From a virus, in the IMG/VR virus record IMGVR_UViG_3300044591_002232, positions 1 through 64,000 of that record: 64,000 bases of DNA; one strand, 5' to 3'. Of this stretch, positions 1 to 51,250 are shown piece by piece (positions within the stretch are counted from its first letter, which is position 1; every line of letters begins with the position of its first letter). The translations under genes and the position numbers were made by a program. A model generated the notes under the pieces. That model searched no databases. It saw nothing but the letters and a program-made list of their open reading frames with translations, and had not been told where the DNA came from.

Positions 1-2
1 AG

Positions 3-735
3 GGCAATTTAGGTATCCAAGGAACAATAGGTCCACAGGGTATCCAAGGTATTCAAGGAATTCAGGGCAATTTAGGTATCCAAGGAACAATAGGTCCACA
101 GGGTATCCAAGGTATTCAAGGAATTCAAGGAATTCAGGGAATTCAAGGAATTCAGGGCAATTTAGGTATCCAAGGTATTCAGGGTACTCAGGGTATTCAA
201 GGTATATCTGGTATTGTTGGTTCTATTGGCCCACAGGGTATCCAAGGTATCCAAGGTATTCAGGGTACTCAGGGTATTCAAGGTATATCTGGTATTGTTG
301 GTTCTATTGGCCCACAAGGTATCCAAGGTATCCAAGGTATTCAGGGTACTCAGGGTGTTCAAGGTATATCTGGTATTGTTGGTTCTATTGGCCCACAGGG
401 TATCCAAGGTATTCAGGGTACTCAGGGTATTCAAGGTATATCTGGTATTGTTGGTTCTATTGGCCCACAGGGTATCCAAGGTATTCAAGGTATTCAAGGT
501 ACTCAGGGTGTTCAAGGTATATCTGGTATTGTTGGTTCTATTGGCCCACAGGGTATCCAAGGTATTCAGGGTATTCAAGGTACTCAGGGTGTTCAAGGTA
601 TATCTGGTATTGTTGGTTCTATTGGCCCACAGGGTATCCAAGGTATTCAGGGTACTCAGGGTATTCAAGGTATATCTGGTATTGTTGGTTCTATTGGCCC
701 ACAGGGTATCCAAGGTATTCAGGGTATTCAAGGAG
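3..735 (+). repeat. Tandem Gly-X-Y coding repeat (collagen-like shaft)
   Basis: From about 190 a unit of 72 bp (24 residues) recurs at least seven times, with some copies 9 bp longer through an extra GIQ triplet. Before 190 shorter units repeat. Copies are nearly identical at DNA level, so length can change by slippage or recombination in steps of one triplet. Confidence 0.9.
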
Positions 736-1328
736 CGTCTGCTTTTTCAAATGCGACCGTAAATAATTTAAATGTCACGGGTATTTCTACATTAGGAATA
801 GTCAGAATATCTTCAGGAGTTGTAACTGCCACTTCTGGTATTGTAACTTATTATGGAGATGGTTCAAATTTAACTGGAATTACTGATGGTAATGTGGGTC
901 TCGGCACCACTGGCACACCGCAGTTTGCAGGGTTGGGTCTGGGCACGGCTGCCGTAGCCGGGTGGGAGCTGACGGTAGGGGGTGCCACCTGCCAGGTGCG
1001 GAATACGGTAACGGCGGTGAGCAATGTTTACTCGTTGGATGTGCAGGCTGCCAACGAGTTTGTTACTGCTGCAGCGATTGCAGAGGCAACTACGATTAAC
1101 CTGTCTAATCTGACTACAATCCCGAGCGGGTATTTATGGCGCGGGGTGCTGAGTTTTCAGTATACATCCGGCACGATTTCATGGTTTACGGGAAATAGTG
1201 GTTACACGGTGAAATGGGACGGAGGTAGCGCAATGACACCAACAGAAAATGAAATAGAGACCGTGGTGATTACAGTCGTTGGTGGTCAGACCACAATTGA
1301 AATTGCACCACTTAAGGGGAGGGTCTGA
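3..1328 (+). CDS. Collagen-like phage tail fibre protein, 5'-truncated by the window edge
   Basis: The frame is open from the first bases, so the N-terminus lies outside the window. About 244 residues are uninterrupted Gly-X-Y triplets rich in GIQ, GPQ and GIV, predicting a collagen-like trimeric shaft. After the shaft comes a segment with the motif YYGDGSNLTGI, which I associate with cyanophage structural proteins, then a C-terminal domain of about 145 residues. Base composition changes sharply near 895: shaft and linker are AT-rich, the C-terminal part is GC-rich like the next three genes. This suggests that the receptor-facing tip was swapped in from another source. A GTG at 894 is in frame but is internal, not a start. 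The propeller gene follows after 2 bp. Confidence 0.85.
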   Translation, partial: GNLGIQGTIGPQGIQGIQGIQGNLGIQGTIGPQGIQGIQGIQGIQGIQGIQGNLGIQGIQGTQGIQGISGIVGSIGPQGIQGIQGIQGTQGIQGISGIVGSIGPQGIQGIQGIQGTQGVQGISGIVGSIGPQGIQGIQGTQGIQGISGIVGSIGPQGIQGIQGIQGTQGVQGISGIVGSIGPQGIQGIQGIQGTQGVQGISGIVGSIGPQGIQGIQGTQGIQGISGIVGSIGPQGIQGIQGIQGASAFSNATVNNLNVTGISTLGIVRISSGVVTATSGIVTYYGDGSNLTGITDGNVGLGTTGTPQFAGLGLGTAAVAGWELTVGGATCQVRNTVTAVSNVYSLDVQAANEFVTAAAIAEATTINLSNLTTIPSGYLWRGVLSFQYTSGTISWFTGNSGYTVKWDGGSAMTPTENEIETVVITVVGGQTTIEIAPLKGRV

Positions 1329-12275: not shown

Positions 12276-12746
12276 ATGACTTCTAAATCTCAACTGCAAA
12301 CCAAAATTCAAGAACTGGAATCCGAGCTTCAAGAGTTCAAACAACAACTGAATAACTACAAAGAGACACCAACCATCGAAACCGCCAAAGTTGGTGATGT
12401 TCTAGAAGACGGTTGTATTGTACTCAAAAAAGAAAATGGTCTCGCTCTTTTGGTGGCCCCAAAATCAACCGAGGTTTATGATACTTGGAGTAAAGAGTTT
12501 TCAACAGTATTCAAGAAACTAGAAAAACAAGGATTTAATCCTTCTCAGTTCTTTATTCCAACCATGGATCAACTTAATCTTGCCTATAAGACCATTCCTC
12601 AACACTTCGCCAGCAACATCTATTGGTCTTCTACAGAGTTTAATGCTACGGGTGCTTACTATCAGGGCTTTAGCGGTGGTAGCATCTTCAGCTTCCGTAA
12701 GACGGCCGCGTGCAGTGTGCGTGCCTTCCGGTGTGTTACTTATTGA
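12276..12746 (+). CDS. DUF1566-like protein with C-type-lectin fold; candidate DGR variable protein, copy 1
   Basis: 156 residues. Residues 1-30 form a coiled coil. The C-terminal domain (IPTMDQLNLAY, IYWSSTEFNATGAY, GFSGGSIFSF, SVRAFRCVTY) matches the Lcl/DUF1566 group, a C-type-lectin-like fold often used as target by diversity-generating retroelements. A paralogue at 50780-51250 has an identical 3' end apart from 12 changes confined to 12609-12716. The product is probably a ligand-binding or display protein; its site in the phage is unknown. Confidence 0.75.
   Translation: MTSKSQLQTKIQELESELQEFKQQLNNYKETPTIETAKVGDVLEDGCIVLKKENGLALLVAPKSTEVYDTWSKEFSTVFKKLEKQGFNPSQFFIPTMDQLNLAYKTIPQHFASNIYWSSTEFNATGAYYQGFSGGSIFSFRKTAACSVRAFRCVTY
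12609..12716 (+). other. Candidate DGR variable region (VR), copy 1
   Basis: Compared with 51113-51220 there are 12 differences in 108 bp and none in the 83 bp before or 37 bp after. In nine of the 12 sites one copy carries A, and the other three are explainable as independent changes from A. Ten fall in codon positions 1 or 2. Confidence 0.6.
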
Positions 12747-50779: not shown

Positions 50780-51250
50780 ATGACAACCAAAACACAACTT
50801 CAAACCAAAATTCAAGAACTAGAAGAAGAACTTTCTTCTTTTAAACAACAATTGAATAACTATAAAAACCATCCAACTATTCAAGAGGCATCTGTAGGTG
50901 ACGTTCTTGAGGATGGCTGTATCGTCCTTAAAAAAGAAAATGGTGTCGCTCTTTTGGTGGCCCCAAAATCAACCGATGTTTATGCTACTTGGAGTAAAGA
51001 ATTCCCTAAATTCTTCAAGAAACTAGAAGAACAAGGATTTAATCCTTCTCAGTTCTTTATTCCAACCATGGATCAACTTAATCTTGCCTATAAGACCATT
51101 CCTCAACACTTCACCAGGACCATCTATTGGTCTTCTACAGAGTTTAATGCTACGGGTGCTTACTGTCAGGGCTTTAGCGGTGGTAGCATCTTCAGCTTCA
51201 GTAAGACGATCAAGAACAGCGTGCGTGCCTTCCGGTGTGTTACTTATTGA
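50780..51250 (+). CDS. DUF1566-like protein; candidate DGR variable protein, copy 2
   Basis: 156 residues, start aligned with copy 1. The N-terminal two thirds differ from copy 1 by ordinary, largely synonymous changes, whereas the last 230 bp are identical except for 12 sites in 51113-51220. C-type-lectin-like motifs IYWSSTEFNATGAYCQGF and SVRAFRCVTY. This pattern suggests recent transfer of the 3' end between copies plus targeted mutation. Confidence 0.75.
   Translation: MTTKTQLQTKIQELEEELSSFKQQLNNYKNHPTIQEASVGDVLEDGCIVLKKENGVALLVAPKSTDVYATWSKEFPKFFKKLEEQGFNPSQFFIPTMDQLNLAYKTIPQHFTRTIYWSSTEFNATGAYCQGFSGGSIFSFSKTIKNSVRAFRCVTY
51113..51220 (+). other. Candidate DGR variable region (VR), copy 2
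   Basis: Counterpart of 12609-12716. At most differing sites this copy keeps A (for example ATC AAG AAC against GCC GCG TGC), so it may be closer to the unseen template. Confidence 0.6.

What the first reader, a model, noticed from the sequence alone, without database searches (positions are those of the whole stretch)
12609..12716. Pair of DUF1566 proteins with DGR-like variable regions
Seen: the genes at 12276 and 50780 are identical over 83 bp before and 37 bp after a 108-bp window that holds 12 substitutions. Ten are in codon positions 1 or 2, nine have A in one copy, and the other three fit two separate changes from A. Upstream of this the genes differ by ordinary, mostly silent changes. 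Known: diversity-generating retroelements copy a template repeat with adenine-specific errors into C-type-lectin-fold proteins, DUF1566-like ones among them. Inference: the phage has, or recently had, a DGR that feeds two targets nearly 40 kb apart. No reverse transcriptase or template repeat is in this window.
Basis: partly seen in the sequence, partly recalled or inferred. Interest (0 to 1): 0.86.

Follow-up and report, generated by a model that had tools for sequence, protein, structure and literature searches.

The report
Retroelement target genes missing their retroelement
A complete cyanobacterial virus genome carries three genes whose variable ends bear the marks of a protein-diversifying retroelement, yet the genome has neither the reverse transcriptase nor the template, so the diversity must have been written in another phage or an ancestor and then shuffled by recombination.

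Summary
The two window genes, and a third copy 4.1 kb beyond the window, carry true DGR-type variable regions (VRs), but not for the reason first given. The window belongs to a 249,820-bp T4-like Synechococcus-type phage that closes in silico (127-bp terminal repeat, reading-frame-continuous). It contains no reverse transcriptase (RT), no Avd and no template repeat (TR). A distant relative (IMGVR_UViG_3300032294_003113) does have an intact DGR with homologous VRs: 53/53 of its VR/TR mismatches fall on TR adenines. Against that external template, the third copy and its relative in a sister strain differ at 21/40 adenine sites but only 4/89 others (P=1e-9).

The a/b pair alone is weak (P=0.04). 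Nine of its 12 differences are old b-lineage alleles left by gene conversion, not new mutations. Between sister strains whose downstream flanks are about 99% identical, the VR is only 65% identical at locus a and 84-87% at locus b, and VR types hop between loci.

Best reading: DGR-written alleles in a genome without a DGR, spread by recombination. Whether a co-infecting phage's DGR still writes them in trans is open. It is a new variant of a known kind: RT-less orphan targets.

The parts
12276..12746 (+). Target gene a: 156-aa protein with an N-terminal coiled coil and a C-terminal C-type-lectin-like (Lcl_C/DUF1566) domain
   Evidence: ORF; Lcl_C weak hit; profile of the family hits the Legionella Lcl C-terminal domain 8q4e, E=1.1e-11; Foldseek 8q4e E=5e-5, prob 1.0, on a model of mean pLDDT 67.5
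12603..12731 (+).
   Evidence: alignment with the G005 TR; 65% identical to its ortholog in sister strain G001 against 99.1% downstream flank
12717..12731 (+). Candidate IMH-like 3' end of VR a (GTGCGTGCCTTCCGG), identical in all VRs and in the TR of the related phage
   Evidence: function inferred from position only
50780..51250 (+). Target gene b, paralog of a (156 aa)
   Evidence: ORF, 84% protein identity to a
51107..51235 (+). Variable region of gene b; a mosaic of b-lineage and a-lineage alleles
51221..51235 (+). Candidate IMH-like 3' end of VR b

Best explanation
Genes a, b and (outside the window, record position 68141) c are target genes of a diversity-generating retroelement, but this phage has no such element. 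Their variable 3' ends were written by adenine-specific mutagenic retrohoming from template repeats related to, but different from, the one in the DGR-bearing relative. That happened in an ancestor or in another phage. The written alleles now exist as at least two types, which homologous recombination (gene conversion) moves among the three loci and between strains. The product is a family of small coiled-coil/C-type-lectin proteins with different binding faces, probably for recognising varying ligands. Shown: adenine-specificity against an external template, absence of RT/Avd/TR in a genome that closes in silico, mosaic structure, and far faster VR divergence than its flanks. Inferred: where the writing took place, the IMH role of the 3' end, and the binding function.
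For: A relative, G005 (IMGVR_UViG_3300032294_003113), has VR1, VR2, Avd, TR, RT and VR3. Avd hits PF22296 at 63 bits and RT hits RVT_1 at 55.7 bits. 53/53 of its VR/TR mismatches are at TR adenines. Its core genes are collinear with the window phage's 203-223 kb region. With this external TR, c versus d (ortholog of a in G001) differs at 21/40 A sites and 4/89 others, P=1.1e-9; restricted to codon positions 1 and 2 it is 21/40 versus 2/46, P=3e-7. Six copies together: 29 of 51 variable columns at A, P=4e-7. No RVT_1, no bAvd, no fourth VR/TR-like sequence. The genome closes on a 127-bp terminal repeat into one 632-aa collagen-like tail-fibre ORF and has TerL, portal, capsid, sheath and scaffold genes. 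Mosaics: b is b4-like, then a-like, then b4-like; a is d-like with a b4-like VR core. Locus a VR is 65% identical between G000 and G001 with 99.1% downstream flank.
Against: The own template has not been found, so the A-test uses a relative's TR. In comparisons between the two VR types, 13-19 differences lie at non-A sites, which needs at least two diverged templates or ordinary divergence. The a/b pair alone is only marginal (7/40 versus 5/89, P=0.04; P=0.11 at codon positions 1 and 2). No classic GC-rich hairpin was found just downstream of VR a or c, but neither was one found for the VRs of G005. G001, G002 and G003 carry the same VR in an unvarying clone.
Confidence: 0.62

Rival explanations
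1. The VRs are still being written in trans: during co-infection of the same cyanobacterium, the RT, Avd and TR-RNA of a DGR-bearing phage (or of the host) retrohome into the window phage's VRs, which keep the IMH-like 3' end as a landing site.
For: The last 30 bp of the gene, including the IMH-like part, are identical in all six copies and in G005 VR3 although the proteins are otherwise only about 37% identical. VRs diverge strongly between near-identical strains. A related DGR exists in a related phage. BPP-1 components work from separate plasmids (PMC12875486).
Against: Non-A letters of the window VRs do not match the only TR found, so that particular DGR is not the writer. No matching TR or VR in 84,980 prokaryote genomes: two hits, both judged chance. 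No other TR in IMG/VR. Recombination alone explains most of the recent changes that can be traced.
Confidence: 0.22
2. A narrower form of the best explanation: the phage lineage had its own DGR and lost RT, Avd and TR recently; the VRs are fossils and nothing is imported from other phages.
For: Three intact targets with two template types; DGR present in a collinear relative. The c copy is an internal-deletion remnant in G001 and G004, as expected for decaying targets.
Against: No remnant of the cassette near the collinear position, also absent in six closely identical contigs covering parts of 199-213 kb. Three targets stay open in G000.
Confidence: 0.3
3. Not a DGR product: a binding surface under strong positive selection plus gene conversion between paralogs.
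For: The mosaic structure is real, and variable residues lie in the lectin domain's C-terminal part.
Against: c/d changes avoid third positions (2 of 25) and hit adenine sites of an independent template (P=1e-9; within changed codons 21/26 versus 4/19, P=8.5e-5).
Confidence: 0.06
4. The phage's own RT or TR exists but was missed, or VR placement is an assembly artefact of near-identical flanks.
For: Closure rests on a 127-bp overlap inside a 63-bp tandem repeat, so sequence could be missing there. Short identical flanks around VRs can mislead short-read assembly.
Against: The closed junction is one continuous collagen ORF. Separate assemblies G001-G003 agree on the VR at locus a; the G001 and G004 VRs at locus b agree closely.
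Confidence: 0.07

Closest known systems
DGR in IMGVR_UViG_3300032294_003113 (a related large T4-like phage)
   Same: Same target family (Lcl_C/DUF1566 C-type-lectin end), same last ~30 bp of the gene, homologous VR with A-derived codons
   Different: Has RT, Avd and TR beside its VRs; no N-terminal coiled coil on its targets; non-A template letters differ from the window VRs
Bordetella phage BPP-1 DGR (mtd/avd/TR/brt)
   Same: Adenine-specific variation of a C-type-lectin-fold target at the gene's 3' end
   Different: Single adjacent target with the full cassette in cis; a GC-rich hairpin after VR (PMC3240598) was not found here
Remote variable proteins of cyanobacterial DGRs (PMC7517822) and partial DGRs in Nanoarchaeota (PMC4372165)
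   Same: VR-bearing target genes without an RT beside them
   Different: In those cases an RT and TR are in the same genome; here the whole genome lacks them
Legionella Lcl C-terminal domain (PDB 8q4e)
   Same: Fold and sequence family of the variable domain

Membership tests
DGR target gene (variable protein) | VR at the 3' end of the gene, on a ligand-binding fold (C-type lectin-like) | tested here: met
   VR ends at the gene's 3' end; Lcl_C fold by profile and Foldseek
DGR target gene (variable protein) | VR differences concentrated at adenines of the template | tested here: met
   Against a related phage's TR: c/d 21/40 versus 4/89, P=1.1e-9; 29/51 variable columns at A, P=4e-7. Own template not available; a/b pair alone marginal
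DGR target gene (variable protein) | IMH shared between VR and TR 3' ends | tested here: met
   GTGCGTGCCTTCCGG identical in all VRs and in the G005 TR; function not tested
DGR target gene (variable protein) | Hairpin/cruciform shortly downstream of VR (reported for phage DGRs, not strictly required for homing) | tested here: not met
   No inverted repeat of 5 bp or more with 3-10 nt loop within 80 bp of a or c; b has a 7-bp one at +47; the intact relative's VRs lack it too
Complete DGR cassette | Reverse transcriptase of the DGR clade | tested here: not met
   No RVT_1 match in 249,820 bp; tblastn with the relative's RT gives only chance hits
Complete DGR cassette | Template repeat | tested here: not met
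   Only the three VRs match by blastn and by core search
Complete DGR cassette | Avd or other accessory protein | tested here: not met
   No bAvd match; control genomes barely ring for this family, so the negative is weaker than for RT

The most novel reading that the evidence does not exclude
A phage that keeps DGR target genes as 'public' landing sites and has them diversified in trans by the DGR of co-infecting phages: a satellite-like relation at the level of a mutation system.
Probability: 0.2. Interest if true: 0.85.

Novelty: new variant of a known kind. Interest (0 to 1): 0.55.

Why it matters
DGR surveys find elements by their RT and, as PMC8144416 states, miss remote targets. A complete phage genome with three DGR-type targets and no RT shows that the reach of a DGR can be wider than the genomes that encode it. 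It also gives a concrete system (this phage, its sister strains and the DGR-bearing relative) in which to ask whether DGR products are shared between phages by recombination or by writing in trans.

Tried and rejected
Host-encoded template: a pattern for the shared 3' end in 84,980 prokaryote genomes gave two unrelated hits, judged chance. TR-shaped pattern in IMG/VR: only G005. RT relatives by protein: only G005 is close, the rest about 28% identical. Phage isolates: no DNA match, and only weak partial protein matches to the target. The c ortholog in G001/G004 was first suspected to be a TR because of its shortened shape; it is an internal-deletion remnant. A contig spanning the collagen-repeat gap was sought and not found; the terminal overlap closed the map instead. 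My first inference that the a/b differences post-date a conversion was dropped after the mosaic trace. G002 and G003 give no independent view of G001 because they are the same clone. In one search the second part (a DNA comparison of G005 with the record) printed nothing because of a wrong file name; it was redone.

Full report
Observation. The window is the first 64 kb of a 249,820-bp virus record. A third copy, c, lies at 68141-68611. Its 5' part is close to a, but its VR differs from a at 38 of 108 positions.

The genome. The major capsid protein is 87% identical to that of Synechococcus phage B23, and portal, terminase, sheath, scaffold and head-closure proteins are present: a large T4-like cyanophage, by inference. 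The ends of the record are classed by IMG/VR as open. Both ends lie in the same collagen-like tail-fibre gene and share a 127-bp terminal repeat; joined there, the two partial ORFs become one 632-aa ORF. The overlap sits in a 63-bp tandem repeat, so a small gap in that repeat cannot be excluded, but an RT cassette there is unlikely.

No DGR machinery. RVT_1 finds nothing, bAvd finds nothing, and tblastn with a relative's RT and Avd gives only chance hits. No other VR- or TR-like sequence exists in the record. Sister contigs G001 and G004 also lack RVT_1, though parts of their genomes are unseen. Six contigs closely identical to the record over parts of 199-213 kb, the region collinear with the DGR-bearing relative, have no such insert either.

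A relative with the whole system. Scanning IMG/VR for the conserved gene end led to G005, IMGVR_UViG_3300032294_003113 (37,769 bp). Its order is VR1, VR2, Avd, TR, RT, further genes, VR3. The RT hits RVT_1 (55.7 bits) and the Avd hits bAvd and the NCBIfam Avd model, the latter below its curated cut-off. The RT reads IGNLTSQ, the DGR form of that motif as I know it. Its closest phage-isolate relatives are RTs of Burkholderia, Shewanella and Pseudomonas phages at 37-38% identity. All 53 VR/TR mismatches fall on TR adenines. Its other genes are collinear with the window phage's 203-223 kb region at roughly 30-70% protein identity. A further VR on contig L102 differs from this TR at 24 sites, 21 of them A.

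External test of the window VRs. The G005 TR was not used to find the differences, so it is an independent yardstick. c versus d (the locus-a ortholog in sister strain G001) differs at 21/40 A sites and 4/89 others (P=1.1e-9); using only codon positions 1 and 2 it is 21/40 versus 2/46 (P=3e-7); within changed codons it is 21/26 versus 4/19 (P=8.5e-5). Over six copies, 29 of 51 variable columns are A sites (P=4e-7). a versus b alone gives 7/40 versus 5/89 (P=0.04), and P=0.11 at codon positions 1 and 2.

Two VR types, moved by recombination. Type I (a, b, both b orthologs, the c remnant of G001) and type II (c, d) differ at many non-A sites, several of them third positions, so at least two diverged templates wrote them, by inference. 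Type does not follow locus: locus a is type I in G000 and type II in G001; locus c is type II in G000, and its G001 remnant reads type I. Tracing alleles shows b of G000 to be b4-like up to 12525 (a coordinates), a-like from 12566 to 12658, and mostly b4-like from 12696 on; a of G000 is d-like with a b4-like core. Nine of the 12 a/b differences are sites where b has the b4 allele.

Tempo. At locus a, G000 and G001 are 99.1% identical downstream, 95.5% in the 5' part of the gene, 65% in the VR and 100% in the last 30 bp. At locus b the VR is 84-87% identical with 99.3-99.5% downstream. VR turnover is thus much faster than its surroundings, but how much is new writing and how much imported alleles is not resolved. 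The clone seen in G001, G002 and G003 has one VR, and consensus assemblies hide minor variants.

Protein. The targets have an N-terminal coiled coil and a C-terminal domain related to the Legionella Lcl C-terminal domain (profile E=1.1e-11; Foldseek E=5e-5). The model is of modest confidence (pLDDT 67.5, below 50 in part of the VR), so residue-level mapping of variable positions is not claimed. Neighbours are HNH endonucleases, a phosphoesterase and unknown genes rather than tail genes, so attachment to a virion is unproven.

Known context. Remote targets of DGRs are known in cyanobacteria (PMC7517822). Partial DGRs consisting of target, VR and cis elements were described in Nanoarchaeota, with RTs elsewhere in the same genome (PMC4372165); their authors left open fossils or remote diversification. 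A large survey states that it cannot see remote targets (PMC8144416). I found no paper in this library on RT-less DGR targets in a complete phage, which is not proof that none exists.

Verdict. Real DGR-type variable regions, in triplicate, in a phage genome that lacks the DGR. The writing was done elsewhere or earlier; recombination spreads the results; current writing in trans is possible and testable.

Noticed in passing
record 206266-207993 (L020:6284-7996), outside the window: ThyX-like ORF of about 570 aa with an intein-like insert (CLAGESLITV...VVHNC) holding an HNH-like stretch; the ThyX of the relative G005 is 253 aa without it.
   Followed up: no
record 133516-134172 (L016:13516-14172), outside the window: Another DUF1566/Lcl_C-like protein (218 aa, PHROG_4245) in a higher-GC stretch beside head genes; its end reads NVRAFRR but its DNA does not match the VRs.
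   Followed up: partly
window 1-1328 and record 249123-249820: The record's two ends lie in one collagen-like tail-fibre gene with 63-bp tandem repeats; the 127-bp overlap closes the map although the record's ends are classed as open.
   Followed up: yes
L034:1446-1613 (G001) and the same place in G004 (L033): Target gene c is reduced to an internal-deletion remnant in sister strains, keeping the start and the VR end.
   Followed up: partly
L102:11315-11551 (IMGVR_UViG_3300033571_016612): A further VR whose differences from the G005 template are 21 of 24 at adenines, on a 40-kb contig without a match to the G005 RT; same metagenome as G006, which is identical to G005 where compared, so possibly a remote target of the G005-type DGR.
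   Followed up: partly
record 72841-74061 (L013:12841-14061), outside the window: Transposase (phrog_506) about 4 kb from target gene c.
   Followed up: no
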